The position numbers and the translations under genes are program-made. The notes under the pieces were generated by a model. It ran no database searches. It was given only the letters and a program-made list of their open reading frames with translations, and was not told where the DNA came from. 64,000 bases of DNA from Selaginella tamariscina (lineage: Eukaryota > Streptophyta > Lycopodiopsida > Selaginellales > Selaginellaceae): positions 15,001 to 79,000 of the forward strand of contig PUQB01000702.1 in the NCBI GenBank assembly GCA_003024785.1. Reading direction: 5' to 3'. Position 1 is the first letter of the stretch, and each line of letters starts with the position of its first letter. Below are positions 21,046 through 63,920 of the stretch, piece by piece.

Positions 21046-22330
21046 TTGTCACCCACAGAGTTGGAGGTTCTTCGTCAGTACATCGAGGACAACTTGGCAT
21101 CCGGCTTCATTCGTCACTCAAAGTCCCCTGCAGGAGCTATCTTCTTTGTCAAGAAGAAGGATGGGAGTTTACGTTTGGTTGTGGACTACAGGGGTTTGAA
21201 TCAAGTCACCATTCGGAATCGGTACCCGTTGCCATTGATCCCGGAACTTCTCGATCGGCTGCGAGGAGCAAAGGTGTTCACGAAGATCGACTTAGGGGCC
21301 TACAACCTTGTACGGATTCGTAGGCGATGAGTGGAAGACTGCCTTTCGTACAAGGTATGGACACTTCGAGTACACGGTGATGCCTTCGGCCTTACCAATG
21401 CCCCAGCCGTGTTCCAACACATGGTGAACGACATCTTTCGTGACTTCTTGGACCAGTTTGTGGTGATCTACCTCGACGACATTTTGATTTTCTCCAAGGA
21501 CCAGGCGGCACATGACAAGCATGTACGATTTAGCGGCTTCGTGAGCATGGCCTGTATGCGAAGTTGGAGAAGTGTTTTTTCGATAGGGATTCTGTGGAGT
21601 TCTTGGGCTACATCGTCTCTCCTGCTGGCGTTTCCATGGACATGCACAAGGTGAAGACCATCGTGGAGTGGGAGAGGCCCAAGTCTGTACGAGATGTACA
21701 ATGTTTCCTTGGCTTTGCAAACTTCTACAGGCGGTTCATACAGGACTTCTCCAAGCGTGTACTTCCACTCACGGAACTCACCAAGCGCACAGGGTTTTCT
21801 CTTGGTCCGACAAGGGAACATGCATTCACAACACTCAAGGACGCCTTCACGACAGCTCCGATTTTAGCACATCCTGACCCTTCTCGTCTTTCTTCGTTGA
21901 AGCAGATGCCTCGGATTTTGCAGTAGGATCCGTCCTATCACAAGTTGGAGAAGACAAGTTGCTTCATCCTGTAGCTTTTCACTCTCGTAAGTTCCTTTCG
22001 GCGGAGATCAATTACGAGATTCATGACAAGGAACTCAAGGCCATTGTGGATTCGTTGAGGAGTGGCGGCATTTCCTGGAAGGTGCTGCACATCCTGTACA
22101 AGTTCTTACGGATCACAAGAACCTGGAGTATTTTCAAACGGCTCGAGTTCTCAGTCGGCGACAGGCTAGGTGGGCGGAGTTCCTATCACGTTTTGATTTC
22201 GTCATCGTCTAGGCCCGGTTTTGGAATGGCAAGGCGGACGCATTGTCTAGGCGCTCTTACCTTGCACCAATCCCGGGCGATCCTGCATATGACTGTCAAA
22301 ACAAGTGTTGTTGGGTCCTGATCGTTTCGG
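21046..22330 (+). pseudogene. N1 reverse transcriptase and RNase H, frameshifted
   Basis: The RT starts with [20 protein letters not shown], then [20 protein letters not shown] and [15 protein letters not shown]. The KVFTKIDL motif follows, with a base lost after ID-L in the GAYNL step near 21298. The polymerase motif [10 protein letters not shown] is intact at about 21471-21500 in the frame 21331-21654. The connection region FLGFANFYRRFIQDFSKRV and the RNase H blocks ([20 protein letters not shown], then DKELKAIV) follow to about 22060, with more breaks after that. The domain order fits Ty3/gypsy. The enzyme cannot be made from this copy. Confidence 0.92.
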
Positions 22331-22539
22331 CTTGCGGCACTACAGGTTCATCAGGCTCCAGCAAATTCAACACTCCTACAGGACATCCGTTCGCAGTTGG
22401 CTACAGACGACTTGGCAAAGAATGTGTTCTCACACATTCATCCTGACATTGCAAGTTCCTCTTCCTCCAGTTCCCGTTCAGACTACAAGTTTTCGCCATA
22501 CAGGATGGACTCCTGTACCGGGAAGGTCTCCTGTACGTT

Positions 22540-23273
22540 CCTGTTGGTATTTCCAGGACTCGTGTGGTACAGGATTGTCATGATACCCGGCTACAGGACA
22601 TTTTGGTGTGGCCAAGACAGTGGAGTTGGTGACTCGCAACTATTGGTGGCCTGGGTTGCAGGTTTTGTGGAAAGGTTTGTACGGAGTTGTGACACTTGTA
22701 ACAGGTCGAAGATGCCTCATCATGCACCCTCTGGTCTTCTTCGTCCTCTTCCTGTTCCTTCTGCTCCTTGGAGATCCATTTCTATGGATTTCCTCACAGA
22801 TCTTCCTCCTTCTCGTGGATTCGATGCAGTTCTTGTGGTGGTTGACCGTTTCACCAAGCAGGCTCATTTCCTACCCTGCAACAAGACAGCTACAGGTCAG
22901 ACAACTGCTGAGTTGGTGATCCGTGAAGTGTTCCGACATCATGGTCTTCCTGAGAGCATTGTTTCCGATCGAGGTCCACAATTCATGTCCAAGTTTTGGC
23001 GAGAGCTTCTCCGAGTCTACAGGTTAAAGTGATCTTTCTTCAGGATATCACCCGCAAACTGATGGGTAGTCAGAACGACAATTCAAACCTTGGAGCAATA
23101 TCTTCGCTGCTTCATCAGTTACCAAGATAATTGGTTGGACCTTCTTCCAATGGCGGAGTTTGCCTACAACAACTCCGTTCACGCATTACAGGACAGACAC
23201 CTTTCTTTGCTCTTACAAGCCACCATCCACGTTTTGACTTTGCTCCTCCCACTTCTCCTTCTTTCCGCTCCCT
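22540..23273 (+). pseudogene. N1 integrase (zinc finger and DDE core), frameshifted and interrupted
   Basis: Integrase inserts the cDNA copy into the genome. The His-Cys zinc-binding region ends SCDTCNRSKMPHHAPSGLLR at about 22689-22745. The catalytic core shows SISMDFLTDLPPS (first Asp), VVVDRFTKQAHFLPC, and [13 protein letters not shown] (second Asp) at about 22963-23000. The region with the third catalytic residue is frameshifted after 23030. The frame [12 protein letters not shown] follows at 23149-23185, and the gene is broken at 23273 by a DNA-type insertion, resuming at 24082. Confidence 0.9.
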
Positions 23274-32584: not shown

Positions 32585-34150
32585 TCAACTATCATGGCCA
32601 CACCAAAATGTCATGTAGCTGGGTATCATGACAATCCTGTACCACATGAGTCCGCAAACACCAACATGAACGTACAAGAGACCTTCTCGGTACAGGAGTT
32701 CGTTCTGTATGACAAACAACTTGTAGTCTATACGGGAACTGGAGAAAGAGGAACTTGCGATGTTAGGACTAATGTGTGAAAACACATTTCTTGCCAAGTC
32801 GTCTGTAGCCAACTGCAAACGGATGTCCTGTAGGAGTGTGGAATCTGCTAGAGTCTGATGAACTTGTAGTGTTACAAGCCGAAGTCGATCAGGACCCAAC
32901 AACACTTGCTTTTAACAGTCATATGCAGGATCGCTTGGGGTCGGTGCAAGGTAAGAGCCTAGACAATGCACTGCCTTGCCATTTTGAAAACCAGGCCTGT
33001 AGATGATGACAAAATTAAAATGTGATAGGAACTCCGCCCAGCTAGCCTGTCGCCGACTGAGAACTCGAGCCGTTTGAAAATACTCCAGGTTCTTGTGATC
33101 GTAAAAACTTATACAGGATGCACAGCACCTCCAGGAAATGCCACCCTCCTCGAACGAATCCACAATGGCCTTGAGTTTCTTGTCATGAATCTCATAATTG
33201 ATCTCCGCCGAAAGAAACTTACGAGAGTGAAAAGCTACAGGATGAAGTAACTTATCTTCTCTAACTTGTGATAGAACAGATCCTACTGCAAAATCCGAGG
33301 CATCTGCTTCAACAAAGAAGGAATGAGAAGAATCAGGATGTGCTAAAATCAGAGCTATCGTGAAGGCGTCCTTGAGTGTTGTGAATGCATGTTCTACCTT
33401 GTGGACCAAGAGAACACTCATGTGCGCTTGGTGAGTTCGTGAGTAGAAGTACACGCTTGGAGAAGTCCTGTATGAAACGCTTGTAGAAGTTTGCAAAGCC
33501 AAGGAAACATTGTACGTCTTGTATAGACTTGGCCTCTCCCACTCCGCGATAGTCTTCACCTTGTGCATGTCTATGGAAATGCCAGCAGGAGAGACGATGT
33601 AGCCCAAGAACTCCACAGTATCCCTGTCAAAGAAACACTTCTCAACTTCGCATACAGGCCATGCTCGCGAAGCTTTTGTAGAACTAGTCGTACATGCTTG
33701 TCATGAGCCGCCTGGTCCTTGGAGAAAATCAAAATGTCATCGAGGTAGATTACCACAAACTGGTCTAAGAAGTCATGAAAGATGTCGTTTCACATGTGTT
33801 GGAACATGGCTGGGGCATTAATAAGTCCGAAAGGCATCACCGTGTACTCGAAGTATCCATACCTGTACAAAAGGCAGTCTTCCACTCATCGCCTAGACGA
33901 ATCCGTACAAGATTGTAAGCCCCTCGTAAGTCGATCTTTGTGAACATCTTTGCTCCTTGCCATCGATCGAGAAGTTCCGGGATCAATGGCAACGGGTACC
34001 GGTTCCGAATAGTGATTTGATTCAAACCTCTGTAGTCCACAACCAAACGTAAACTCCCATCTTTCTTCTTGACAAAGAAGATAGGTGCTCCTGCAAGGAC
34101 TTTGAGTGACGAATGAAGCCGGATGCCAAGTTTTCCTCATGTACTAACGA
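32585..34150 (-). pseudogene. N2 reverse transcriptase and RNase H
   Basis: Minus-strand frames carry RT blocks [20 protein letters not shown] (34046 leftwards) and [20 protein letters not shown], then [20 protein letters not shown] (33756 leftwards). RNase H follows with [20 protein letters not shown] and [20 protein letters not shown] (33330-33130). Unlike N1, the KIDLRGAYN step is intact here. Frameshifts occur near 33840, 33600 and 33120. Confidence 0.9.
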
Positions 34151-36038: not shown

Positions 36039-36047
36039 CTTGTACCG
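36039..36047. repeat. 9-bp target site duplication, left (CTTGTACCG)
   Basis: Identical to 44514-44522. The paralogous uninterrupted site at 8742-8750 reads CCTGTCCCG, once only, and continues into the sequence found to the right of the transposon. Confidence 0.92.
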
Positions 36048-36086
36048 GAGTGTCGCCATTTTGGAGGCTTGGGGCCCAGGAGGCCT
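36048..36086 (+). repeat. Left terminal inverted repeat of the Mutator-like element
   Basis: Begins GAGTGTCGCCATTTTGGAGG. It matches the reverse complement of 44476-44513 at most positions, the longest identical block being GGAGGCT, then CAGGAGGC. An AGAATATTC-rich subterminal zone follows (36091-36131). Confidence 0.88.
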
Positions 36087-36242
36087 GGGCTCGAATATTC
36101 AAGAATATTCTAGAATATTTTGGAATATTCTTTCTGGTCGGCAGTATTGGCCTCAGTCGGCAAAAAAGAATTCTATTAAAACTGTTGTATTTTTTTTAAT
36201 TTTTTTTTATATTAGCTTAATTTATTACTCAATATACATTAG

Positions 36243-39200
36243 CTAAAGTTTCTTCTTCATCTTAAGTAAAGCTGCAGTTCTCGAACCACCAGTTACGCTT
36301 GGACGTGGAGGTGTTTGAGTAGGTAACTCTTCTGGTCTAATGTTCTCTGCAAGCTTGTTTGTTGCCAACCTAGAGAGTTCGAAACTCTTCTCGGTTCCTA
36401 TAATATTCCTTCCGAGCTCGACGGCAGCTAACAATGATGACCCGGTTCCGGAACCAATATCCCAGACTAGGTCGCCAGGTCTACTGAGACGCTCGATCAA
36501 AAGCTGCATGAGTCGAACACTCTTCGGTTGAATCATAATCCTGCACAATCTTCCATTAGGATAAACATAGCAAAGCACTTCCTTACCAAGCCTCCTGATA
36601 ACGGTCGGCAGTGTCGACGAGGATCGTGTTCGTCAACGCCAGAGGGTTTGGCCTCTTCGACTTCTTCTCAGAGCTTTGCAGCACCAAGAGAACTAACAAG
36701 TTATCCTGCCACATAGACCAAGTTAAACTTGAACTTGAATAGCTAGCTTACCTTAATTTTGTCACGGTATCCCAGCCTCGTGCACGGTAGACGCTGTAAG
36801 TCCCTGCAACCTCCAAGTTGATTACTGCAGCCGCCTGAATCACCGCCGAAACAGAAGGAGAACTCGCGAAGACGACCATGAAACCACTCGCTGCCAAGTG
36901 CATTCCACTGAACTGCAAGGCCTCCTCAAACTTCACCGGATCTAGCTGCACAATGTCCTTGTTGATGCTAGCACCTCCATATACAAGCTCATTGGGCAAG
37001 TCGAGGATGATGAGGTTGAAGCCGTATTCACCTACCACTTCCTGGAACAACGTTTGTGACTCAACCGTATGTAGTCTGTCAACCTGTTCTCGGAGCTTGG
37101 TGTACACCTCTGTCTGGGAAGCACCTGGCTCGAAGAAAGACCTGCTCATCTCCTCCATGTCGCACACAGCTAGGTCGTAGGATCCACGGGATGCAGCCAG
37201 GGTCGGGATGAAGGTCATCAGGTCGTCCTTGATGTCCAAACTAGCTACAAGTGGCTGTACCTCATTGATTGTAAAGTCGAATGCTGGCGGAGGTGCTGTA
37301 GAAGAGCTTGGTCCCGCTCCCGATCCCTTTGCAGGTGTAGTTGTCTTCCGCACCGTCTTCTTCATCTTGCTCTTCTTGATAGCCTCTACTTCTTCTGGCT
37401 CCCAAAGAATCGCTGGTAGATCATTGGCGTGCATGTCGAATAGTGTGCTCTCCCAAGCTGGTGGCTGTTGCGACGGACAGTCGAGCCAGAATGGAACATG
37501 CTCCCGTTCGAACGGTGTTAGAGCTCCTCTGCTCTTCGACCACATGTGAGGCTCGCTTGTATGATCTGTCCACAGCTTCATCGTATGGGACGGTGTCATT
37601 TGCTTCGCCAGTATGAACCTGCAACACAAAGTCAGACAGTAGCAATGCTGGATTGAAAGCTTACCTCCATATCATCCGACGCGCAGATTCCTCACGCTCC
37701 AGAAACTCATTCGGCTCCATCGAATAAGTGAACCGTATGCAGTCATGGAAGGGCTGAAAGACCAGGCACTTGCTCCGAATTCTCATCTCGTCAAACCAGC
37801 TCATGAAGTCGACATCCGTTCCAACTTCTTCACCATCCTCTCGCAACCCCTTAAGGATCTGAATGGCTTCCTCGCGCACAGCCTTCCAATATAAGTCCAA
37901 GGTGAACCACTTGATCCACTCTTTGTCCTGCATGCCCGGTAGCCCAAGTGTCTGTTGTTCTGCCTTGGATTCGAGACGGGTGAGCTTGTTGAGGTATCGG
38001 AGTCGCAGCATGTTTGGAATCTTCGCCCTTGACATCGCATACAGCTTCTCAATGCCCATCCAGCGACACTGCTTATGAGAGATGTTTGTCACCTTCTGGA
38101 ACCACTCCTCCCCCAAGTCTGGGTCTATGATGGAGAGGAACTTGTGCATACGCTTGTCATGCTTCTTGTATACTAGCTGCTTCAGGTTCACCTCAACCTG
38201 TGGATTGCCCTTAGCACTGGTGACTGCTCTGTCGAGATCATCGTCGATCTCGTTCTGCACATAGAACAAGTTAAAAATTTCTTTCCTATAAATTAAATCG
38301 GAGGTTACCTTGAAAAGTATCTTTGCGCAGATCAGGTTCGGAAGAGGATGCCAAGCCGTCTTTCCTGATGAACTCTCCTTCCACTTCCGCACCTCAAGAC
38401 GATCAACCTCCGTGAGTGACTCGAGGATTTTCTGAGTTCCTTCTGTACTAGTGCAGACCGCCTTTACAGCGAGGAGAATATGTGGTAGCGTTGTTTCCAC
38501 AGATGTTGCTGAAGATCTGTTCAACGAAACTGTAAGTCTAAACTCTTAACAAAAAGAAAAGAAAATACTCACATGTTAATCGATTGGAACATCGAAACCA
38601 ATTGAAGAATGTCGAGGTTCTCCGTGGAGATGAAACTCGATCGAACGCGAATAGCCCATCGCTGGTTGTCCTCTGCATCCTCTCGGTACAGCTTCTGCAA
38701 AGCCTGTAGCCTATGGTTCCCGTCCCAACAGCTAAACTTCCTGTTTGAGAGCCTTGAAGCCCACTGTTTGTACTCCGGCTGAGTAAGAGCTTGCTCGAAA
38801 GACCGGTGCTGCTCGTACTGAATCGTGTCCTTCGACAGCTCCGATAGCTCCTCAGCAGTGAGTCGATCTCCGATGGACAGAATGAACATGGCCGTGTTGC
38901 GTAGATAACCAGCCTTCTTCAACGATGACACCAGCCTGTCCAAGTCCCCTGGGTTCACTCGTCGAACCACCTCGTTGGAATGTATTCTGCAGATGGGCAC
39001 ATCAGGAGGATCACCAAGTCCCTTGATAGTAATTTTGTCGAGCAGGTTTGCTGAGCTCTCCAAATGCAGGCTCGCCGGTATGCTGTATAACTCCTTCGGC
39101 TCCTTATCGCTCTTCGCCTTCTTGCCTTTTGAATCAGCTTTCCCGCGGCTCTCTTTTTGCTGACTGCCTCCTCCAAGTCGTCCTCGCTAGCTTCAGCTGC

Positions 39201-39467
39201 CTCTGTCATCTGCACTTGCTCGTTCAGGACTGCAACCTCAGCGGATGAAGGAGGCAACTGCGACGAGCTCTCCGGGAAATCTGTGATTGTTGGTGGAGGC
39301 TGTTCTTGCTCAACTGCTACTACTCCAGACTGAGTCACTGGAGGATCCTCCTTTGGTACATTAGATGGTTCTCCTCTCTTGCCTCGCTTCTGCTTCGATA
39401 TCCTCTTCTCTTCCCGTGGCTCTTCATCAGGCGCAGTCTCTAGTAGACGTTTTGAAGCTCTCACCAT
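36243..39467 (-). pseudogene. ParB-like domain + DNA methyltransferase, transposon cargo gene
   Basis: Predicted DNA-modification protein. The start at 39467 (MVRASKRLLE) is followed by a Lys/Arg/Glu-rich tail. A ParB-like domain (about 39000-38580) shows ICRIHSNEVVRRVNPGDLDR and CWDGNHRLQAL, the GxxR-type motif. Two middle exons without known domain follow, then a permuted methyltransferase with motif IV-like LIILDLPN at about 36991-37011 before motif I DIGSGTGSSLLAA at about 36423-36462, the beta-class order seen in N4-cytosine/N6-adenine enzymes. Likely introns: 38530-38572, 38255-38308 (in-frame), 37619-37664, 36716-36761, 36541-36586; three are exactly 46 nt. An A-run at 39154-39158 appears one base short, and exon phases at the first and fourth introns are off by one. 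Either small lesions exist or my splice choices are wrong. DLPN departs from the usual DPPY. Confidence 0.72.
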
Positions 39468-41136
39468 TTTGGGAACTCTGGAAAGTAAACACACAAGTCA
39501 ATTGATGAGGAGTCAAAATAAAAAAACAAACAAAGATGACTAACCTTGTGGCTGCCGACTCAAGCTAGATGCTGCCGACCCTCTCAGTCGGCAGAGAGAT
39601 GTAGAAGAAAAAACCTGCCGACTGAGATAGTTTGTGCCGACTCTGTCAGACGGCACAGAAGAGATAATGGTGCCGACTGAGATAGGATGGTGCCGTCCCT
39701 CTCAGACGGCACAAATGGGAAGACCCATTAACTGTTTTAAAAGAAATACTTGAGACGCAAAGAAAAAAAAACTAATTCAAAATACCTTGTGGCTGCCGAC
39801 TGAAGAAGGATGGTGCCGTCACTCTCAGTCGGCACAAATGGGAAGACACTATAACTCTGAAAAAAAACATTGTTATACGGATACTTGAGCCGCAGAGCAA
39901 AATATAAACAAATTCAAAATACCTTGTGGCTGCCGACTGAAGAAGGATGGTGCCGTCACTCTCAGTCGGCACAAATGGGAAGACACATAACTCTGAAAAA
40001 AAACATTGTATACGGATACTTGATCCAGAGCAAAAATAAACAAATTCAAAATACCTTGTGGCTGCCGACTGAAGAAGGATGGTGCCGTCACTCTCAGTCG
40101 GCACAAATGAGAAGACACATTAACTCTGAAAAAAAACAATGTGATACGAATATGATCCAGAAAGCAAAAAATAAATATATCGAACATACCTTGTGGCTGC
40201 CGACTGAACTAGGATGGTGCCGTCACTCTCAGTCGGCACAAATGGGAAGACCCATTAACTCTGAAAAAAAAACCTTGTGATACGAATACTTGAGCCAGAA
40301 AGCAAAAAAAAACAAATCGAAAATACCTTGTTTTTGCCGACTGAACCAGGATGGTGCCGTCACTCTCAGTCGGCACAAATGGAAAGACCCATTAACTCTG
40401 AAAAAAAACATTGTGACACGTATACTTGAGCCGCAAGGAAAAAAATAAATAAATCGACGATACCTTGTGTTTGCCGACTGAACCAGGATGGTGCCGTTGC
40501 TCTCAGTCGGCACAAATAAGAAGACCCTATATCTCTGGAAAAAGAAATACTTTGAGCAGCAAATCATAAAATACAGAAATTACACATACCTTGTGGCCGC
40601 CGGCTGAGCAGGATGGTGCCGAGAATCTAAATCGGCACAGAAATCTCCATTGTTATACTTGGGCGCTGCACGAATCGAGTCGAAATGGATGGCGCCGCAG
40701 TGGAAACCGTAACTCTGAGATCTGAGATTAAAGAAACCCTCTGGATCTACCGCAGTGGAAACAGATCTGAGATTGAAAGAACCCTAGCCGCAATGGAAAC
40801 AGTAAACCCTATCTACCAAAAAACCCTAGCCGCAATGAAAACAGTGAACCCTACGGAATAAATGTGACATTAATATTTAGGGTTTATTTTAAAATATGTG
40901 AATAATTGGTAAATGTGAAGATATTTCAAATCATAAAAGGTAGAAATTAAATTAAATCGGTGATACTAGAGAGGACATCATTAAGAACACTGTGAACTGG
41001 GCAGCATAGAATTAATTATATACAAACGTGTATTCACGTTTATTGTTAACGATTGTAATTTTTTTTTGGTAAGAGAAAGTGTGTTTAATCTTTTGCTTTG
41101 CTTTCCTAAACCACCGAGCTTTCTCCTTGCGTTGTC
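39468..41136. promoter_or_regulatory. Shared intergenic region of the two divergent transposon genes
   Basis: The start codons of the methyltransferase gene (39467, minus) and transposase gene (41137, plus) face away from each other across this 1.67-kb stretch, which holds the GCCGAC repeat array. At about 40745-40850 two or three copies of an ACCCTAGCCGCAATG-like phrase follow. A bidirectional promoter is inferred from the arrangement only. Confidence 0.5.
39544..40650. repeat. Central array of ~135-bp repeats with GCCGAC inverted repeats
   Basis: Seven regular units start with CCTTGTGGCTGCCGACTGA or a variant at 39785, 39922, 40054, 40189, 40326, 40463 and 40589 (period 126-137 bp). Three shorter irregular units precede them (39544-39720). 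Each unit has TGCCGACTGA, about 20 nt, then TCAGTCGGCA, able to form a hairpin. The array lies between the two divergent genes, where their promoters should be. Both strands show open frames only because the unit lacks stops in some phases. Confidence 0.92.
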
Positions 41137-44100
41137 ATGGCCAGAGTTACCTATGAAGGCATTGACAAAGATTTCCCAGTCGATGAAGATGGAAATGCTT
41201 TTGTGTTTGAACATGATCTTCACATTGCTTTCAACATTCCTTGTTGGTTCAGTATACATGTGGTTCAATTGATGTCAGTTTCTGCGAGTTCTGGAGAAGA
41301 TGTGGAGTTGTTACCAGAAGGCAATGCATCAAACCAGTTTGTCTTTTACACATTGTGCCCGGCAAAGGGCCCGTTGTTCAGGTTGCGGACAGAGGAGCGT
41401 GAGGAATCCATGCTGGTGTGTCTTCTAAGAGCAGACAAATGTAGGATAGGGAAGGATCTCATTGGTTCGTCTGAAGTTAAACGAGTCTCTGAACTACCGC
41501 AGATATACAATGGAAATGTCATTTTCGAACTTCCCCCTAAGACAGAAAGCACAGAGAAGTACTCGGGGATGAATCGCAAGGATGGCTGCTACCATTGGAC
41601 ACACCCGAGCACAACACACTGGCATGTTCCGGCGCGAGTCAGTCGAAGTTCATGTGTCGGACATCTCCAATGCATCAATCCTACTTGCCCCTACTTGGCT
41701 TTTGAGAAGAAAGCAAATGAATGTCACTTCAAGGGTGCTGTGGAGAAGGCAAAGACAACTGAGACAGGCAAAGTAATAGGCATAAAATGTAAGCATTGTG
41801 GAGAGGAGCCATTGCTGGTGCACACTTGTCCGGCTTATGTGTACTACATTCTGCCAGACGACATTTCTTTTACAAGGTTGTTCATTCACAGAGGTGTTCA
41901 TCAGCATCCAGTCAGCCCCTCAGTGTCAGCTTCAAACGTTCAGCGAGCCAGATCTAGTGTCAGCAACGTGGTAAAGAGCAGTCCGCGAACCAATCAACGA
42001 GTGATTGAGTTTCAAGCCGCGCGTGAGCTCATCTTTGAAGAACTTTTCAAGGAAGAAGGAGAAGTCTCGTACACTGGTTTACTCTCAAAACTTGAACCTC
42101 TAACAAACCATCGAAGGTATTTTTTTAGATCTCTACACACTGACGTGACCTTTTCTTTAGGACTCGGGACTGGATTACACAATCAAGACAGAAGGAGACA
42201 CACTTTAGAGAGGGTTACGAGGGTCTTCTGGAGCTGAAGACAAAGCTGCCAATACCTTTCATTCACGTCATACATGTTCCAGGGATGGAACTGCATGGTG
42301 CTGAGGAGCAGCCTCTGATCTTCAAAATGACAGTTGAGGGACCGGGTTCAGGAGTTGAGTACATCAGAAGGTGTCAAAGTGGAGGAGACCTTCATGATCA
42401 ATGGGTTGTTCTGGACCACACGCACCGCATACCAGACTGGGCGACAATTGGAATACACCTTTATGACCCATTGTAAGTTGTAAAACTCTTCATAACACTT
42501 TCTAATCTTCGTTATCTAACGCTCTCTTGCAGTGTCAGATCCATGGTGACTATAGCTTACGCAGATATGTGCCGCGAAGATAATGTTGCAGTGCTGAAGT
42601 TCTTGAACACAATGCTAGAGGTTTGTAAGAAGCAGGGTTTGGAGAATGTCAACTTTGCTGGTTTCATGTCGGATGAGGCTGGAGCGATATGGATAGCCTT
42701 GCGCCAAGTATTCAACAACGGAGCAAAGATGAAAGGGAGGGAAAGAAGCTGTCTGTTTCACTTTATGCAATCTGTGCGTCAGGTGACAAAGAAATGGATC
42801 GCAGAAGAACATCGCGAAGAACACATGAAGCTTGCTCGTGCCTGGCCTGCAGCACTGAATGAACAATCTAAGAAAGAACAACTGGCAATTCTCGAGTCTT
42901 TTGGGAAGGACGAGCGTCAAACATTCGAGCTTTGAAGACATGGCTGTCTTGGTGGATCAGGCATGAGGACCACATCTCCATGGCGGAACTGGGAGACATG
43001 ACAGAAGAAGGACTCGCGAGCGTTCCAACTACAAACAATGCTGAAGTGATTCACGCTAGAGCAAGAAGAGCAAGATTGGCCAAAAGAGTACCACTGCTGG
43101 AGGCGACAATGTTAGACCTCACCGATGCAGTTATGCAGAGTGCGAAGGTGAAAGCGGCAATAGAAGGGAGGTATACAGGGTCAGGGCCTTCGAAGGAAAC
43201 TCTGTTGAAACGAGTGCAACGCAAACTCTCTGAGGGGAAAAGTGTATCTCCATCAACAATTATTAATCTGGTGGAAGGCGAGGAACACTTGACCAGCCCG
43301 GAGTTCACGTGTACCACTAACGTTCGAGTGCAAACTGTTAGGAGAACAGTCACAGGAACAGAACAGTCTGATGCTCGACGTTCACACAGACATGATGTAG
43401 AGTACACAAGCGGGTGGTCCAAAACAACAGGAGAAAGAGGTTAAGGTTCGAAGAGGTTTCGGAGAGAGAGATTGCTCAAACAGAGTGGGCCATCAGACGA
43501 ATCGGAGCATCAGTAAGGTTAAGTGTTTGGGGATGAATCAGGAAGGAACTGCTCTGTGTGGAAAACCAATCGGTTATCCAAGCAGAGTGCCAGCACCAGG
43601 ATTCTATGGAAAACGAATGTACATTGATGCCTTGGGGAATGAGGAGTATGTACAACAGATGATGTGGTTCTGCCCAAAAGATTCAGGGTGTTTCACGCGG
43701 CCAAACGGCAAAATTCTTCGGTCACGTATTCCAACACCACCAACGGTTTGGCCTGTGCTCAAGGAAACGAAGCTGACAAGTGAGGAGGTCAGAGAACTAC
43801 AGGATGCAGGCTTTGTTCTGGAAGGTTTACAGGGGATGGCAGGAAGAGTAGATGAGGGTCAGAAGGACAAAACACCATCGCCACCACGTGGAGCTGGATC
43901 TACAACAATTCCACCTTTCGAAGGACGTATGGTTCGGACTCCAACAAAAATGTCTAAGGAACAAGAGAAGAATTTCCGCAAGGCCAAGACGTTTTTAGGT
44001 TGTGTGCGAAATGTTGAAGTGACAGCTAGAGGACGGAAGGAGGCTTTCGTTGTGTCGGCAGGAAATGACTCTGCAAAGGTGACTATTAATACTTATCCTT

Positions 44101-44297
44101 CATGCAGTTGTTCTACATTTCAGAAGAGCAAAAGTTGGAGCCCATGTGTACACATGTACTTCGTCTATAGCCGTGTGCTTGGCTTGAACCCGGAAGTCAC
44201 ATATTTTCTACAAAGGCGATCGCTCAGTGACATGGAGGTCCACCGTTTGCTGGTGAATTGCAACAGAGTTCATGACCCACCGGTGCTACAAGGATAA
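41137..44297 (+). pseudogene. Mutator-like (MULE) transposase with SWIM zinc finger, frameshifted
   Basis: Catalyses cut-and-paste of the element in the nucleus. Exon 1 (41137-42116, MARVTYEGIDKDFP) has a Cys/His-rich DNA-binding region: CVGHLQCINPTCPYLAFEKK, then KCKHCG and HTCP. It resembles the FLYWCH/WRKY-like fingers of MULE proteins. Introns 42117-42160 (44 nt) and 42473-42532 (60 nt) have GT-AG ends and keep frame. The DDE core shows LDHTHRIPDW (first Asp, about 42412), MSDEAGAIW (second Asp, about 42667), CLFHFMQSV (the MULE CxxH), and TTNNAEVIHARARR (Glu, about 43029). A SWIM finger, CSCSTFQKSKSWSPCVHMYF, lies at about 44101-44160. One-base breaks near 42905-42931 and 43405 disrupt the frame, so this copy should not make full transposase. 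A run of 8 Ts opens intron 1. Confidence 0.88.
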
Positions 44298-44329
44298 ATG
44301 GTTTAGGGTTTAGGATAATGTCTTATTAA

Positions 44330-44384
44330 GCCAGTGGGCATATATTAAGCCAGTCGGCGTATATTAAACCAGTCGGCATATTAA
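44330..44384. repeat. Right subterminal AGTCGGCA-like repeats
   Basis: Three direct copies of TTAAGCCAGTCGGCATA (variants GTGGGCATA, GTCGGCGTA, GTCGGCATA), about 21 bp apart, immediately after the transposase stop. A matching pair, GGTCGGCAGTA and CAGTCGGCAAA, lies at 36134-36161 near the left end. The core equals that of the central array. Confidence 0.85.
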
Positions 44385-44475
44385 AAAAACTTATATATTC
44401 TAGAATATTCTTGAGAATATGCTAGAATATGCTAGAATAACCCTAGAATATCCGCGAATATACTAGAATAATATG

Positions 44476-44513
44476 AAGCCTCCTGAGCCGGAGCCTCCTT
44501 TTCGCCGAGACCC
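44476..44513 (-). repeat. Right terminal inverted repeat of the Mutator-like element
   Basis: The reverse complement begins GGGTCTCGGCGAAAAGGAGG and pairs with 36048-36086. An AGAATATTC/AGAATATGC-rich zone (44394-44470) precedes it, mirroring the left end. Confidence 0.88.
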
Positions 44514-44522
44514 CTTGTACCG
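44514..44522. repeat. 9-bp target site duplication, right (CTTGTACCG)
   Basis: Identical to 36039-36047; see the left copy. Confidence 0.92.
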
Positions 44523-44880
44523 CTGGCTTCAATAACGACCTTGAAAAGTTCATCACATTTCTGCTCAACATACACAGAAGCAGGAACAATCCGCTTTGCG
44601 AATGGTTGATTTGAAGCTGACACAAGGGCAAAATCATCTGGATACCTGCAAAAAGAATGACCATAGCATAGGAGAGAAATTTCGCACAATTTATCGCAAA
44701 ACTTATTTGATGCATCAGGATTCTTTAAGATATTCATGAAGGGATATGCGCAAAACCTGGAGTCGATAAGTCGCTTGAGCTCCCTTGAACGCACGTAAAA
44801 TATATGTTTGGGGACTCCTCCGCAGATTGGCATGTCTTGATAGAAGAGTTTTTGCATCCTTTATTGAGGTTTTGAGTAAT
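44523..44880 (-). pseudogene. Unidentified gene remnant, copy B, part 2 (N-terminal side)
   Basis: The minus-strand frame starts MQKLFYQDMPICGGVPKHIF at 44857 and continues ELKRLIDSRFCAYPFMNILK, NPDASNKFCDKL, then PDDFALVSASNQPFAKRIVP and EQKCDELFKVVIEAS up to the transposon. It is better preserved than copy A (8751-9055). The TTTTTGCAG near 44650 may be a splice acceptor. Function unknown. It is separated from its 3' part (35763-36038) by the Mutator-like element. Confidence 0.45.
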
Positions 44881-44998
44881 ACAGTAATATGAGCACCTGG
44901 AGTAGTCGCGATAATTGGTACTTTGCATGGCCACAGGTGCGATGTGAGGGAATTGGCAGTACCTGGAGAACTGGTCATAGGCATGGGTCGTTTCGAGG

Positions 44999-47230
44999 GT
45001 ACTCCATGCGGCGAGATGCGTTTGATTTTGGAAAGCACAGAGGCAAGCACATCAATCAGGTTGATAATGGCTATTTGAAATGGATGGTCACCAGCTTCCA
45101 AGCAGTTGATGCCTTGACAAGGAGGGGGAAAATGAAGCGGCAACAATCAGCAATCAGAAATGTTCATGTCCATGATCTCCTTTTTGACTTAAAGTCCTGT
45201 ACCAGGAAAAAAGACCTGCACAAGGGGAAACGAGCCCATGCAAAGGCAGTGGAAACTGGGAACGAGTCGAACATGTATGTTGCAGCAACACTCATCAACA
45301 TGTACGCCAAGTGTGGTAGCATGGTAGACGCTCGGACAGTGTTTGACAGTATCCAGGAGCCGGACGTGGTGTCCTGGACTGCTGTGATCCTGGGATATGC
45401 GGATAGTGCACAAGGTCTTGCTGCCCTGGACTTGTTTTTAAGGATGAAGGACGAGAGAAGTTGTCGGCCAGATTCCATGATTTATCTTGCTGCCTCAAGG
45501 CCTGCACGTCACTGGCAGCGGATGGAGATGAAAGTGGAAAGAAAAGGTGTCTAGAACAAGGTAGAAATATACATTTGGAGATTGGTTGCCATATGGATCA
45601 ATTCGTGCAGAACATGCTCATAGACATGTATGCCAAGTGTGGCAGCATGGTAGACGCTAGGAGCGTGTTTGACAGTATCCAGGAGCCGGACGTGGTGTCC
45701 TGGAATGCTGTGATCCTGGGCTATGCGGACGATGGACAAGGTCTTGTTGCCCTGGACTGCTTCTCCAGAATGAAAGAGAAGTGCAGATGTGCGCCCAATT
45801 GCGTGACTTATCTTGCTGCCCTCAAGGCTTGCACGTCACTGGCAGAAGATGGAGATGAAACTGGAAAGAAAAGGTGTATGGAACGAGGTAGAGAGATACA
45901 TTTGGAAATTGGTTGCCATATGAGTCAGTTCGTCCAGAACACGCTCATAAACATGTATGCCAAGTGTGGCAGCATGGTAGACGCTAGGAGCGTGTTTGAC
46001 AGTATCCAGGAGCTGGACTTGGTGTCTTGGACTGCTCTAATCTTGGGCTATGCGGAGGATGGGCAGGGTCTTGTTGCCATGGACTTGTTCTCCATAATGA
46101 AAGAGGAGTGTAGATGTGCGCCTGATTCTGTGACATATGTTGCTGCTCTCAAGGCTTGTGGTTTGAATGGGGCCTTGGCCATTGGACGAAGGTTACATTT
46201 AGAAATAAAAGAATTTAATGTTCATATAATAACATCTTTGGTAGACTTTTATGCAAAATGTGGGAGCATGGAAGAAGCTCGTGAAGTATTTGATTTGCAC
46301 CCACGAGTAAGAGATGTATCAACATGGAATGCACTTTTAGCAGGTTATGGTAAATTTGGGAACACTAGTTATGTCTTTAACCTTTTTGAGTCAATGCAAG
46401 ATCAAGATTTTCGACCAAATGATGTCACATTTTTGTGCATACTTGGATGTTGTAGTCATGCAGGTCTAGTAGAAAAGGCATGGGAGTACCTTGAAGTAAT
46501 GCTTATGCAGTATAGACTCACCCCTAATGTGATGCATTACACCTGCATGGTTGACCTTTTGGGTCGCATAAATAAGTTAGATGAGGCTGTTACTTTATTA
46601 CAGAAAATGCCTTGTGATCCTAATGCAGTGACTTGGATGACACTTTTAAGTGCTTGTCATAAATGGAAAAATGTTGAGATAGGGAAAATGGCTTTCAAAT
46701 CTTTGGTGAATTTGGATCAAAAAAGGCATCTGCCTATATACTTATGTCTGAAATATATGTAGTAAGGGTATGTGGGAGGAGCAAGAGAAGGTGTTGAAAA
46801 TAAAGATGAAGTCTGATGTTTGGAAACTACATGAGCAAGCTTATGTTATGGATGGGTTGGGAAGGATGGTTAAATTTGTGGTTGGGAGGAATCTCCTACA
46901 TATATTAAAAATAAATTGAAACAATTTCTTAAAAAGATGCAAGAACATGAATATGTTGCTAAATCATATAACATGAGTTGTTTTAGAATGGATGATGAAA
47001 ATAAGAAAGCACTATGTGGACATAGTGAAATGCATGCTGTTATTTATGGCATCTTGAATACACTTCATGGAGAGGTTGTTAGAGTTGTTAAAAATATAAG
47101 AATGTGTAACAATTGTCATTATACAACTAAGATGATTTCAAAGCTTTCCAAGAGAATTATAATGGTAAGGGATGAAAGTCAGTTTCATGTTATGAAAAAT
47201 GGCAATTGTTCATGTGGAGATTATTGGTGA
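44999..47230 (+). pseudogene. PPR-DYW RNA-editing factor, broken copy B
   Basis: The better-preserved partner of 9251-11723. The N-terminal part is open from 44889; a likely start is MRRDAFDFGKHRG at 45007. PPR repeats with LINMYAKCGSMVDARTVFDS run from 45280, and a 433-codon frame at 45461-46762 holds most of the array and E motifs (MHYTCMVDLLGRINKLDEAV). DYW deaminase at 46916-47230: CGHSEMHAV (His/Glu), CNNCH, final CSCGDYW. Lesions: a missing C near 45493 (also missing in copy A at 9661), a lost base near 46725, and a frame change/stop near 46885. A plastid or mitochondrial C-to-U editing role is the family function; this copy is unlikely to be active. The internal units are near-identical to one another, with KKRC and GREIHLEIGCHM linkers. 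Confidence 0.9.
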
Positions 47231-52200: not shown

Positions 52201-53320
52201 GAGAGAAAGACATGGGACAAATCAGACTCCAAGGGGGCAAATGACACCACCACGGACGAGGAGAACCTCTCAGACGTTCCAAAACTGGCCCAGAAGGAGG
52301 GACGGGTGGGAACCATGAAGCACGAGCAATCACAACGAAGGGAGACCCACAAGGTGGTAGCACGGCATGAGGACCTAATGACGACTCTTGCTTAATTAGG
52401 ATACACTGCACATAGGAATAAATATTGCAAAGTGTGTAATGTCCAGGGATCTCACAACACGAATGATTGTTACCAGCTAACCAAGCTCTTAAGCGACATG
52501 CTACCCTAGACTGGCACTTGGGCCGTTGAGCGACAGGAGGCAGACCACCGAGGAGACCAACGGTATGGGGTGGCCAACCCCGCCAAAGATTGCAATCAGG
52601 AGACCACAACTAGAGGTCGCACTCCTAGGAGCGCCAACAGAATCGACCAAGGTATGACGACAGGAACAGACGGCCAGAACGCCATTAGCTGATTTGCACG
52701 CTGTGCAGGGACACCATCCACTATACTAATGCTCTTGGATCGCAATTTTCAAGCCTATGCTAGAAGCGCACGTACGAAAGGCCATAGGGGTGGCCAAGGG
52801 ACCAGCCCCAGCCACGGTAACACCAGGTCCAGCACCATAGGTCCACCATGTAGAATTGTCACCCCAAGCTGCAATGTGGGGCAATCACGAGGTCACAAGC
52901 CCACAGACGAGACAACCCATTGACTTGGAGGAGGAAGACAACGGGGAGTCCAGTGAGGAGGAAGTGGCAGCCAAACTCAAAGAATTGGGTCAGTGGGAGC
53001 GAAGGCACGCCGAGGTGGAGATGGCTATGGAAATGTGAGACTGGCACAGGGTCCAGGGGCCATTGGCATGACGGGAATGTGCGAGGCCCTCGCCGGGAAG
53101 GTGCGAGAAACCCAGGTGTCAATAACTTTAGGAGAGCTACTATGGTTATCTGCAGGGCTTTATAAAGTCCTCACCAGAGAGCTGCACGGGCCCACAGTAG
53201 CACCCCAAGGGTCGCAACAACAACAATAGACTTTGTGGACGATGTACCAGCCATACCCGTCCAAGTGGCAAGCTGCACAGTCCACAACGTGATCATAGAT
53301 GGGGATCAGACGTAAATATC

Positions 53321-53704
53321 ATGTCCATGGAGCTCCATCAGGAGTTGGAAATGCTGCCCTCGGAGCCCTCACCCTTCCTCATACGTATGGCGAACCAAGC
53401 CAAGGTGGCACCTAAGGGCATCATGAAGAAGGTAGGTATCAGGATCAAGAGCATTAAGTTTCTGATAAACGTGGTTGTTCTCGACATGCATGCAAAATGG
53501 GGATTCGACTTACTCCTGGGCCGGCCGTGGCTCCAGGCACAAGGGTACAATATGACTAGGAGAAGCAGCAAGTCTGTTTCCCTCAAGGGGGACTCATATC
53601 TGTTACGACGAAACAAGTCCCGACCACCATCAGAATCCCGACCCCAGGAATACCACCTCCCAAATTGGGAGAGGGATTGGATGATGAGGAAGAAGCAGCC
53701 CTAG
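53321..53704 (+). pseudogene. E3 protease region
   Basis: The frame encodes VVLDMHAKWGFDLLLGRPWL, the C-terminal block of retrotransposon aspartic proteases (ILGxPWL type). The upstream active-site triplet is not evident: the region before it reads VIIDGDQT, where DGGA/DTGS is expected, so the enzyme is probably dead or the site is in a broken frame. Confidence 0.65.
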
Positions 53705-58545: not shown

Positions 58546-59660
58546 ATGCATGTCACCCACAGAGTTGGAGGTTCTTCGTCAGTACATCGAGGACAACTTG
58601 GCATCCGGCTTCATTCGTCACTCAAAGTCCCCTGCAGGAGCACCTATCTTCTTTGTCAAGAAGAAGGATGGGAGTTTACGTTTGGTTGTGGACTACAGGG
58701 GTTTGAATCAAGTCACCATTCGGAATCGGTACCCTTGCCATTGATCCCGAACTTCTCGATCGGCTGCGAGGAGCAAAGGTGTTCACGAAGATCGACTTAC
58801 GAGGGGCCTACAACTTGTACGGATTCGTCCAGGCGATGAGTGGAAGACTGCCTTTCGTACAAGGTATGGACACTTCGAGTACACGGTGATGCCTTTCGGC
58901 CTTACCAATGCCCCAGCCGTGTTCCAACACATGGTGAACGACATCTTTCGTGACTTCTTGGACCAGTTTGTGGTGATCTACCTCGACGACATTTTGATTT
59001 TCTCCAAGGACCAGGCGGCACATGACAAGCATGTACGATTGTTCTACAGCGGCTTTGCGAGCATGGCCTGTATGCGAAGTTGGAGAAGTGTTTTTTCGAT
59101 AGGGATTCTTGGAGTTCTTGGGCTACATCGTCTTCCTGCTGGCGTTTCCATGGACATGCACAAGGTGAAGACCATCGTGGAGTGGGAGAGGCCCAAGTCT
59201 GTACGAGATACAATGTTTCCTTGCTTTGCAAACTTCTACAGGCGTTCATATAGGACTTTTCCAAGCGTGTACTTCCACTCACGGAACTCACCAAGCCCAC
59301 AGGGGTTTTCTCTTGGTCCGACAAGGTGGAACATGCATTCACAGCACTCAAGAACGCCTTCATGACAACTCCGATCTTAGTACATCTTGATCCTTCTCGT
59401 CCCTTCTTCGTTGAAGTAGATGCTTTGAATTTTGCAGTAGGTTCTATCCTATCACAAGTTGGAGAAGACAAGTTACTCCATTCTGTAGCCTTTCACCCTT
59501 GTAAGTTCCTTTCGGCAGAGATCAATTATGAGATTCATGACAAGGAACTCAAGGCCATTGTGGATTTGTTCGAGTGGCTGCACTTCCTAGAAGGTGTTGC
59601 GCATCCTGTACAAGTCCTTACAGATCACAAGAACCTGGAGTTTTTTTAAACGGCTCGAGT
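58546..59660 (+). pseudogene. N3 reverse transcriptase and RNase H
   Basis: RT motifs [20 protein letters not shown] (frame ending 58744), then [20 protein letters not shown] and [20 protein letters not shown] (58886-59040), with breaks near 58733, 58815 and 59100-59220. RNase H follows with [40 protein letters not shown] and [20 protein letters not shown] (59326-59649). Cytosolic reverse transcription enzyme of the element; broken here. Confidence 0.92.
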
Positions 59661-62144: not shown

Positions 62145-62247
62145 CATGGCGACCATGGAGGGATTTGCCATTGTTGTGGAGGAATTTGTTGAATTCCTAA
62201 GTGAGAAGTGATAGCTCTGAGAGAAGTAGAGCTTAAGTGAAAAAGAA

Positions 62248-63920
62248 GTGTGTATATATATGATGATGGATGGAGCCTTGGAGGCACATAATCCTAACTC
62301 GTCTCTAGCAAGAGAGAGAGATAATAGGCAGGCCGAGAGAGAGGCTGCCCGAGCTGAGCAAATAGAGCTTGCTAATAGGCAAGAAGCTCTTATAAAACTC
62401 ATTGATCAGATAGGAGAAAGTGCTGCTAAAGGTGTGGAGGATATACAATACGGTGACTATCAAACTGCAGGAGAAGAGGAGTTGGAAGGAACTCCTCGGA
62501 GAACAGGATTTCCTATTAGACCAGGAGGAGTATCTCCTGGAAATTCCCCTCTTGGTGAGGAGGAAGGTGGTAGAGAAAACCCACCGAGTATGTCTAATAT
62601 GACACTTTTCCCCGGAATGTTGGGAGGCACATTGATGTTCCCAATATTTTCCGCAGGAAAGAAGGAAAATCCTAAAAGACATTTATTGCAGTTTGAGGAA
62701 GTTGTGAAGTTGTATAAAGTAAGCAATGCAGATAAGTTGCTTATATTTCCACACACATTAAAAGGAAATGCATCTGATTGGTATTATGAGTTGGAGAAAG
62801 ATGTGAAAGAGGATTATGAGAAAGTTACAGAAGCTTTTAAAGAATACTTTAAAAAGGAAGAGTTGCCTGAAGAGCACTTAGAGAAGCTCAGAAATATCCT
62901 ACAAGGAAAAACTGAAACTCTAAGGAATATACACACCGTTTTAAAAAGCATGAAAAGAAATGCTCACTATATGTTAAGGAAGAAGCTTTGCTTCAATGGT
63001 ATAAGCAAGGATTGCAGAAGCCATATAGGCATTATGCAATGACAATTGAGGAAGTAGACAGGAAAGATCTTGTAAAGCATCTTAAAGATTATGAGAAGAA
63101 GAGAGACAAATAGAAAACATAGCAGAAGGAAAGATAAAATCCTCAAGGAGAAAGGAGGATAGTTCAGATGATGAGGATGAACCTATCAAAGTTCGGGATT
63201 ATAAGGCTGATGAGAGAATGTTATTACAGCTAGTTAAGTCCTTAAAAGGTAATCCTGTGTATAAGGAATTAGATGCCAAAGTATGGTGTGCCAAGTGTAA
63301 AAATCCTGGACATACTAAGGATGAGTGTAGACTACAGTTGCCAAAATGTCAAATATGTGATAAAGAAGGACATTCGGCAAAAGACTGTAAGTATTTTATT
63401 AATCAAAATGTGGCACGTGTGGAAAAAGAAAGGAGAAAGAAGGAAGAAAGGAAGGCTGGTATAATAGGCCGTTTCCTGTGAGACAACCACCTGTTACCAC
63501 ATTCCCATCTCGGAATAGGAAGCTCTATTATGAGGAACAGCCTGGGAGTTGGGAAGAAGGAAGAAATAGGAATCCTTTTGATAACATAAGGAATGTTCCT
63601 TATACAGGAGGAGATGATAGGCTGTATGAGGGGAATCAAACTAGATATGCTCCACCATATAAGCCTAATATGGGAAGGAAGGAGACGTCCTATAGAGGAC
63701 CAGAAAGATATCCAAGAAAAGAAAGTTATGAATCAAAATAACTATAGACAAAGACAAGTACAAGGAAGGAATTTATTAATCTTACTTGTTATACATGTGG
63801 AGAGAAAGGACATATTTCTCCAAATTGTCCTAAGAATCAGCCTTCTACTCAAACAATGCTCCCAAGAGAGAACTTGGAGCTAGGTTCATTGATGTGGATG
63901 AGAATGAGCTGGAAAACCAT
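62248..63920 (+). pseudogene. E4 gag (capsid and zinc knuckles), frameshifted
   Basis: The frame 62248-63042 holds a charged coiled-coil-like N-terminus (RERDNRQAEREAARAEQIEL) and a capsid with MFPIFSAGKKENPKRHLLQF and FPHTLKGNASDWYYELEKDV, the plant retrotransposon gag pattern (LKGxAxxWY). The frame shifts near 62965. The frame 63218-63481 carries paired CCHC knuckles, CAKCKNPGHTKDEC and CQICDKEGHSAKDC (about 63289-63390). A third, CYTCGEKGHISPNC, is in another frame at about 63788-63830. The start at 62248 or the inner Met at 62260 is a guess. Protease and pol should follow beyond 64000. Confidence 0.82.

What the first reader, a model, noticed from the sequence alone, without database searches (positions are those of the whole stretch)
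36243..39467. Transposon-borne ParB-like/DNA methyltransferase: a possible self-modifying plant transposon
The minus-strand gene joins a ParB-like domain (RRVNPGDLDRL, CWDGNHRLQAL) to a methyltransferase whose motif IV-like block precedes motif I (DIGSGTGSS). ParB plus beta-class DNA methylase in one protein is a familiar bacterial and phage architecture. As spliced cargo inside a plant Mutator-like element it would be very unusual. Inferred role: methylating the element's own repeats to affect transposase binding, silencing or replication timing.
Basis: partly seen in the sequence, partly recalled or inferred. Interest (0 to 1): 0.9.

Follow-up and report, generated by a model that had tools for sequence, protein, structure and literature searches.

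The report
Jumping gene carrying a DNA-methyltransferase-like gene
A recently active plant jumping gene, probably from a spikemoss, carries beside its transposase a conserved second gene that looks like a bacterial-type DNA-marking enzyme, and the two genes flank a repeat array built on one short DNA word, so the element may chemically mark or unlock its own DNA.

Summary
The gene is real and belongs to the transposon. The element is window 36048-44513 with a perfect 9-bp target duplication. Its minus-strand gene has six exons and encodes 992 aa in intact copies (9 of 20 fetched); the window copy carries two 1-nt deletions. At least 37 near-identical full-length copies exist in the genome. A second family, 56% identical in this protein and 63% in the transposase, has the same divergent two-gene layout. 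The methylase is therefore a conserved element gene, not casual cargo. Its C-terminus is the SAM-binding half of a permuted (beta-class) N6/N4 amino-methyltransferase, above Pfam's cut-off. The ParB label rests on weak evidence. The presumed catalytic motif is DLPN, not DPPY/SPPY, in both families, so activity and target base are open. New here: the families' tandem arrays between the genes differ but share the 9-mer CAGTCGGCA (17 and 25 copies in the two elements read; none in the other 55.5 kb of the window). This resembles the motif arrays of Arabidopsis VANDAL/VANC anti-silencing. Best reading: a Mutator-like element whose second gene acts on its own arrays as a sequence-directed epigenetic factor. 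Binding and chemistry are unproven.

The parts
36048..44513 (.). whole transposon (8466 bp); ends GAGTGTCGCC... and ...GGCGAGACCC form a short imperfect terminal inverted repeat
   Evidence: flanks diverge at these points among fetched copies; ends and target duplications
36039..36047 (.). left target-site duplication CTTGTACCG
44514..44522 (.). right target-site duplication CTTGTACCG
38573..39467 (-). MTase gene exon 1: charged N-terminus and the ParB-like region; carries one of the two 1-nt deletions of this copy
38309..38516 (-). MTase gene exon 2
37665..38254 (-). MTase gene exon 3 (middle region of unknown fold)
36752..37618 (-). MTase gene exon 4: middle region, then presumed motif IV (DLPN); carries the second 1-nt deletion
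36587..36705 (-). MTase gene exon 5
36243..36540 (-). MTase gene exon 6: SAM-binding motif I (DIGSGTGSS) and C-terminus
39553..40639 (.). intergenic tandem array (TRF 39745-40543, 137-nt unit, 5.9 copies) holding 15 of the element's 17 copies of CAGTCGGCA/TGCCGACTG
41137..44297 (+). divergent transposase gene (about 1019 aa after two inferred introns; open in copy L013): D..D..CxxH..TNNxE signature read by eye, C-terminal SWIM-like zinc finger
   Evidence: this copy has 4 gaps and no mismatch against L013
36154..36162 (-). left subterminal copy of the 9-mer
44324..44381 (.). right subterminal 19-nt repeats; the last holds the 9-mer at 44370
36093..36131 (.). GAATATTC-like decamer tract at the left end
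44395..44471 (.). GAATATTC-like tract at the right end

Best explanation
This is a young two-gene Mutator-like DNA transposon of a lycophyte-like plant. Gene 1 is the transposase. Gene 2, transcribed the other way, encodes a protein with a ParB-like N-terminal region, a long middle region, and a C-terminal permuted beta-class amino-methyltransferase domain. Shown: the element has moved recently, gene 2 is intact in 9 of 20 fetched copies, gene 2 has been kept by purifying selection between two families, and both families carry between the genes a tandem array that preserves one 9-mer. Inferred: gene 2's product (alone or with the transposase) recognises the 9-mer arrays and acts on the element's own DNA or chromatin, by adding 6mA or 4mC or by SAM-dependent or non-catalytic binding. 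This would keep the promoter region open or mark it for transposition, as VANC proteins do for VANDAL elements. Confidence below is for the whole statement. That gene 2 is a conserved, functional element gene with a SAM-binding MTase domain is about 0.9; that it works on the arrays is about 0.5; that it methylates DNA is about 0.4.
For: Mobility: of 20 fetched copies, 18 had both ends found; 11 of those 18 have perfect, mutually different 9-bp duplications and 13 of 18 match at 8/9 or better, against 0.9% of random pairs under the same offset search. 37 of 41 matched stretches are full length at 99-100%. 11 of 23 compared copies differ from the reference copy by no substitution in the codons compared. 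Conserved partner gene: a second family keeps both genes in the same divergent layout. Between the families dN is 0.38 overall (ParB-like 0.34, middle 0.31, MTase 0.36), while 145 of 205 four-fold sites differ, so synonymous change is near saturation. Transposases are 635/1008 identical. MTase: Pfam N6_N4_Mtase above cut-off; phrog_67 DNA methyltransferase E 5.9e-11; best PDB matches MboIIA, DpnA, CcrM. Motif I lies 71 residues from the C-terminus, so the catalytic half must be upstream, as in the permuted beta class. Array: the 9-mer occurs 17 times in the element (all noncoding) and 0 times in the other 55.5 kb of the window; it is the top shared 9-mer of the two families' noncoding DNA (17 and 25; maximum 4 in 100 mononucleotide shuffles of one side). 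Whole array units are gained and lost (13, 15, 17 or 19 copies) among copies with near-identical genes. The family-2 palindrome occurs 1135 times genome-wide against 0 for the reversed control; 6 of the 8 clusters in the truncated listing sit 3.15-3.17 kb from a methylase end listed. VANC precedent: passages and abstract read.
Against: No binding, methylation or expression data exist here. The presumed motif IV is DLPN, lacking the aromatic residue, and the upstream half does not score above shuffles with a phage MTase profile (393 and 206 of 3000 shuffles as good), so its catalytic competence and even the exact motif are by position only. The 9-mer also lies singly near both ends, so the transposase may be its reader. 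The top NCBIfam match of the domain, far below its cut-off, is a corrinoid-associated methyltransferase (E 2.5e-5), just ahead of a DNA methyltransferase model (2.7e-5). The single-sequence structure model of the ParB-like exon was useless (mean pLDDT 33.5). No Pfam MULE model matched the transposase. The family-2 transposase of L039 could be aligned only with 14 frameshifts.
Confidence: 0.45

Rival explanations
1. Gene 2 is a transposition co-factor (MuDR mudrB-like): the 9-mers are transposase/co-factor binding sites, and the methylase fold serves as a SAM-binding or DNA-binding scaffold with no methylation of biological consequence.
For: The 9-mer also sits near both termini of the window element and near the methylase-side end of L039 and L040; the motif IV position reads DLPN in both families; antisense extra genes are listed for several plant MULE groups (PMC6446971, passages).
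Against: The SAM motif DIGSGTGSS is invariant between families, and the array, not the ends, holds 15 of 17 copies.
Confidence: 0.3
2. Gene 2 methylates DNA as 6mA or 4mC so as to silence or time the element (self-restraint), as bdelloid N4CMT marks transposons, rather than to open it.
For: Bdelloid N4CMT is an N6_N4_Mtase-type enzyme that marks transposons and tandem repeats (PMC8885841, passages); same broad domain class here.
Against: N4CMT has SPPY, and its change to APPA abolished activity; here the motif is DLPN. A self-silencing gene would not obviously be kept in a bursting family.
Confidence: 0.15
3. The gene is passively captured cargo (Pack-MULE type) with no element function.
For: MULEs tend to acquire host gene fragments (PMC6446971, start of abstract).
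Against: Two families at 56% protein identity keep it with matching intron positions, layout and purifying selection.
Confidence: 0.05
4. The C-terminal domain is a non-DNA Rossmann methyltransferase (RNA, protein or small molecule).
For: Weaker matches to L11 methyltransferase and PRMT7 appear below the DNA enzymes in the PDB; a corrinoid-associated methyltransferase is the top NCBIfam match, below cut-off.
Against: The best hits in Pfam, PHROGs and PDB are DNA amino-MTases, and motif I near the C-terminus demands the permuted order. MT-A70-type RNA enzymes share that order (recalled), but no MT-A70 model matched.
Confidence: 0.05

Closest known systems
Arabidopsis VANDAL elements and their VANC anti-silencing proteins (PMC5735166 passages, PMC10398659 abstract)
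   Same: Mutator-like element with an extra gene; 8-9-bp motifs amplified in noncoding tandem arrays that expand and contract.
   Different: No methyltransferase domain is mentioned for VANC in the passages read; Pfam found only PF01555 in the protein here; the arrays here lie between two divergent genes.
Retrotransposons encoding DNA methyltransferases (dinoflagellate and charophyte DNMT elements; DIRS elements with Dam-like enzymes), and DNA transposons with a DNMT in marine viruses (PMC5890265 passages)
   Same: A mobile element carrying its own DNA methyltransferase gene.
   Different: Those carry C5 or Dam-like enzymes; here a plant DNA transposon with a permuted N6/N4 enzyme fold and a ParB-like region. 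The marine-virus elements are known to me only from one sentence of that paper.
Fungal DNA transposons encoding TET/JBP dioxygenases (PMC12730594 passages, which also mention SET genes in oomycete MuDR elements)
   Same: DNA transposons carrying a gene for an enzyme that edits epigenetic marks.
   Different: Different enzyme class and different hosts.
Phage and bacterial ParB-methyltransferase proteins (12 phage proteins; relatives)
   Same: Order ParB-like motif, then presumed motif IV, then motif I; 150 residues from IV to I here, 151 in the phage protein L042.
   Different: The 12 phage proteins carry DPPY at 404-444 aa, and 119 of the 120 relatives listed are annotated with PF02195; here 992 aa, DLPN, no PF02195 match, a long middle region and introns.
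Bdelloid rotifer N4CMT (PMC8885841 passages)
   Same: N6_N4_Mtase-type enzyme in a eukaryote linked to transposons.
   Different: A host gene with a chromodomain and SPPY; not carried by the element.

Membership tests
Mutator-like elements (MULE) | 8-11-bp target-site duplication (PMC6446971) | tested here: met
   9 bp; perfect in 11 of 18 copies with both ends (of 20 fetched), window copy included
Mutator-like elements (MULE) | DDE transposase matched by a MULE-type profile | tested here: inconclusive
   No Pfam MULE match; D..D..CxxH..TNNxE read by eye and conserved between families; SWIM E 0.004 with one ORF, below cut-off
Mutator-like elements (MULE) | terminal inverted repeats | tested here: met
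   Short imperfect repeat of about 20 bp; the MULE table lists TIRs from none to hundreds of bp
beta-class N6/N4 DNA amino-methyltransferase | SAM-binding motif I region of PF01555 | tested here: met
   35.8 bits against 26.7
beta-class N6/N4 DNA amino-methyltransferase | catalytic motif IV [DNS]PP[YFW] upstream of motif I | tested here: not met
   DLPN at the expected place in both families; upstream half not above shuffles. Hence filed as MTase-fold and beta-like, not as a proven enzyme
beta-class N6/N4 DNA amino-methyltransferase | methyl transfer to DNA | not testable with these tools
   needs biochemistry
ParB/Srx-fold N-terminal domain (PF02195) | profile match | tested here: not met
   No ParB match. 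Weak local resemblance only: hhalign probability 25%, E 7.5e-4, mismatched controls 0.0065 and 0.063; 0 and 13 of 3000 shuffles as good for the two families
ParB/Srx-fold N-terminal domain (PF02195) | fold | tested here: inconclusive
   single-sequence model pLDDT 33.5
VANC anti-silencing system | motif-dense noncoding tandem arrays in the element | tested here: met
VANC anti-silencing system | second-gene protein binds the motif and lowers DNA methylation | not testable with these tools
   needs ChIP or binding assay and methylomes
VANC anti-silencing system | homology to VANC proteins | not tested
   no VANC sequence was compared directly; Pfam scan of the protein gave only PF01555

The most novel reading that the evidence does not exclude
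A lineage of DNA transposons that writes its own non-canonical base mark: each element encodes a ParB-like/amino-methyltransferase that recognises CAGTCGGCA arrays between its two genes and deposits 6mA or 4mC there, making the element self-distinguishing from host chromatin and resistant to 5mC silencing. This would be an element-specific epigenetic code in a land plant, written by an enzyme whose catalytic loop (DLPN) is not among the motif IV variants I met in the calls or recall.
Probability: 0.25. Interest if true: 0.92.

Novelty: new variant of a known kind. Interest (0 to 1): 0.72.

Why it matters
Whether 6mA or 4mC are real, enzyme-written marks in plants is disputed (recalled; one listed title, PMC6547475, concerns artefacts in such measurements). 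A young, high-copy element with an intact candidate writer and a defined 9-mer array offers a direct test in one plant. It also suggests that motif-array-directed control of Mutator-like elements, known from Arabidopsis VANDALs, may have a counterpart with a different protein in an early vascular plant lineage.

Tried and rejected
Protein-database searches with the full protein and with the MTase domain found no relative at E <= 0.01. Scans of viral and prokaryotic contigs found none, so no donor or wider phylogeny could be built. Single-sequence folding of the ParB-like exon gave a meaningless model, and no fold search was run on it. The intact spliced protein could not be sent to structure prediction under that tool's input rule, so I did not send it. 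An intron does not convincingly explain the first frameshift: many GT/AG combinations would restore the frame, but intact copies show a plain 1-nt difference. An extra 42-nt intron proposed by my spliced alignment for family 2 was dropped because that exon is open without it. The inverted-duplication copy in C531 was first taken as a second architecture and then set aside as aberrant after canonical copies were read. CpG observed/expected (0.64-0.86 in the element's parts; 0.34-0.82 over 4-kb bins of the window) was not informative, since youth explains it equally. Two further methylase-end hits (C1016, C586) proved to be decayed family-1 relatives, not new families. The species name was not established: 300.7 Mb in 1391 contigs with 46-56-nt introns fits a Selaginella genome in my recollection, and one search did not verify it. 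None of the ten paper searches showed such an element; not all ten aimed at that question, two returned no paper, and most subscription journals, Repbase reports and preprint servers are outside that library.
Full report
What is there. The window lies in a 300.7-Mb, 1391-contig genome. Short introns and two PPR ORFs point to a lycophyte such as Selaginella; the species is my inference and was not verified. The finding lies inside a transposon at 36048-44513, flanked by the perfect 9-bp duplication CTTGTACCG. Two genes diverge from a central region: a minus-strand methylase-like gene (36243-39467) and a plus-strand transposase gene (41137-44297), which is open in copy L013 if two inferred introns are removed.

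The minus-strand gene. Six exons with five GT-AG introns of 46-56 nt give one protein. I fetched 20 copies from the genome. Nine of the 20 read as an uninterrupted 992-aa protein (three distinct sequences, seven identical), nine hit a stop, and two could not be spliced with the fixed boundaries. The window copy is one of the broken ones: two single-base deletions and no substitution against the reference copy L013. Across 23 copies compared with L013 (19 fetched and four others), 11 show no substitution; five of those 11 are identical in the coding sequence and six differ by indels alone (1-19 nt in total). This suggests uncorrected long-read errors, although real damage cannot be excluded.

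Copy number and age. A DNA search found 41 matched stretches, 37 of them full length at 99-100% identity; only 40 of 886 candidates were scored, so this is a lower bound. Of the 20 fetched copies, 18 had both ends found. Eleven of those 18 have perfect 9-bp duplications and 13 match at 8/9 or better, each with a different sequence; five match poorly (4 to 7 of 9). Random pairs reach 8/9 in 0.9% under the same offset search. Older decayed relatives also exist (L024 at 94% identity with six stops; L053 and L054). The family has a past and has recently burst.

A second family with the same plan. A PF01555 search of the genome listed 150 scored matches out of 739 candidates, all over the cut-off; 109 of the 150 show a 106-aa open frame. 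Three copies with that frame which I fetched (L033, L039, L040), and L032 with 113 aa, belong to another family; the rest are assigned to it by inference only. Two fetched stretches (L039, L040) have a related transposase and a related methylase gene, again divergent, with an array between them. The methylase gene of L039 is open over 1015 aa, with introns at the five matching places. Its transposase could be aligned only with 14 frameshifts. Between families the methylase proteins are 56% identical and the transposases 635/1008 identical. dN is 0.38 while 145 of 205 four-fold sites differ. The gene has therefore been kept by selection for protein function, in the ParB-like (0.34), middle (0.31) and MTase (0.36) parts alike; the N-terminus is looser (0.76). 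This speaks strongly against casual cargo.

The methyltransferase domain. Residues 898-953 match PF01555 at 35.8 bits against a cut-off of 26.7. PHROG 67 (DNA methyltransferase) matches at E 5.9e-11. A two-family profile finds MboIIA, DpnA and CcrM first in the PDB at E 1.5e-4 to 1.8e-3, with ribosomal L11 and arginine methyltransferases weaker. In NCBIfam, where all matches are far below cut-off, a corrinoid-associated methyltransferase (E 2.5e-5) stands level with a DNA methyltransferase (2.7e-5). Motif I (DIGSGTGSS, residue 921) is 71 residues from the C-terminus, which leaves no room for a catalytic half downstream; the fold must be permuted, as in beta-class enzymes. Upstream by 150 residues lies FNLIILDLPNE / FNLVIFDLPNG, against 151 residues from DPPY to motif I in the phage protein L042. 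Results against this reading: the upstream half alone does not score above shuffled sequence (393 and 206 of 3000 shuffles as good), and DLPN lacks the aromatic residue of DPPY/SPPY. Bdelloid N4CMT loses activity when its SPPY is changed to APPA (PMC8885841, passages). Either this is a divergent catalytic loop or the domain binds SAM or DNA without methylating.

The ParB-like region. No library model for ParB matches it, nor any solved structure of a ParB by sequence, nor anything in six frames of the genome at E <= 10. Against a profile of 12 phage ParB-methylases, the DGNHRLxAL core aligns with GGHQRLKVL (hhalign probability 25%, E 7.5e-4; mismatched domain pairs as controls 0.0065 and 0.063). 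Family 1 beats all 3000 shuffles (10.0 bits; best shuffle 8.3), while family 2 is matched by 13 of 3000 (4.6 bits; best shuffle 10.5). The order ParB-like, motif IV, motif I is the same as in the phage proteins. I call it ParB-like by resemblance, not ParB by membership. The structure prediction of that exon alone failed.

The array. The two families' intergenic arrays are different repeats (137-nt units and 39-nt units). Their noncoding DNA nevertheless shares one dominant 9-mer, CAGTCGGCA: 17 copies in the window element, all outside coding sequence and none in the other 55.5 kb, 25 copies in the L039 locus and 13 in L040; shuffles of one side share at most 4 (100 mononucleotide shuffles). 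In family 1 the 9-mers form inverted pairs whose starts are 32 nt apart. In family 2 they abut as the palindrome CAGTCGGCATGCCGACTG, which occurs 1135 times genome-wide against 0 for the reversed control. Of the eight clusters visible in that truncated listing, six lie 3.15-3.17 kb from a methylase end listed; the other two contigs (C1, C13) are not in that capped list. In family 1 the array gains and loses whole units: 13 nine-mers in 6 copies, 15 in 10, 17 in 2, 19 in 1, with one copy unanchored (19 of 20 scored). Single 9-mers also sit near both ends of the window element.

How it probably works. Arabidopsis VANDAL elements, also Mutator-like, amplify an 8-9-bp motif in noncoding tandem arrays that their VANC protein binds, removing silencing marks (PMC5735166 passages; PMC10398659 abstract). 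The element here has the same logic with a different protein: a conserved second gene, a conserved short word, and arrays that evolve by unit gain and loss. The likeliest role of gene 2 is therefore a sequence-directed epigenetic factor for its own element, possibly through 6mA or 4mC. Steps shown: anatomy, recent mobility, conservation, motif sharing. Steps inferred: binding to the 9-mer, methyl transfer, anti-silencing. The main rival is a transposition co-factor whose methylase fold is a scaffold.

Relation to known things. The MULE group table seen in passages lists zinc fingers, FAR1, PMD, SET and an ovarian-tumour-type gene among extras but no DNA methyltransferase; the terms methyltransferase, methylase and ParB are absent from that paper's main text (PMC6446971). 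Retrotransposons with DNMTs or Dam-like enzymes are known, and one sentence of the same paper mentions DNA transposons with a DNMT in marine viruses (PMC5890265, passages). Fungal DNA transposons with TET/JBP genes are known (PMC12730594, passages). None of my ten paper searches, named in Tried and rejected, showed a DNA transposon with a permuted N6/N4 methyltransferase. It is a new variant of a known kind: an element-encoded DNA-modification gene in a Mutator-like transposon.

Noticed in passing
36093-36131 and 44395-44471; also near both ends of the elements in L039 and L040: Element ends in both families carry several GAATATTC words about 10 or 20 bp apart; GAAnnTTC repeats have the spacing of heat-shock elements (recalled), so they could be stress-responsive or transposase-binding sites.
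   Followed up: partly
L038+L032+L037 (G000:C531, about 71764-79202): One family-2 copy is a head-to-head inverted duplication of the methylase half with both copies of the same end but no transposase match and no target duplication seen: aberrant transposition product, hairpin source or misassembly.
   Followed up: partly
copies L009-L034: Six of 23 copies compared differ from the reference only by small indels with no substitution, suggesting uncorrected long-read errors; frameshifts in this assembly should be read with caution.
   Followed up: yes
44880-46762: PPR gene beside the insertion with a 327-nt tandem duplication of PPR units (2.7 copies); a second PPR ORF lies at 9589-10206.
   Followed up: partly
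22322-23032, 32912-33700 (minus), 53201-53704, 58745-59365, 62230-63042: Pieces of LTR retroelements (integrase, RT RNase H, protease, reverse transcriptase, gag) lie across the window (ten ORFs scanned of 64 listed).
   Followed up: partly
residues 301-690 of the 992-aa protein (exons 2-4): The long middle region is the best conserved part between families (dN 0.31) yet has no Pfam match; an unknown domain may hide there.
   Followed up: no
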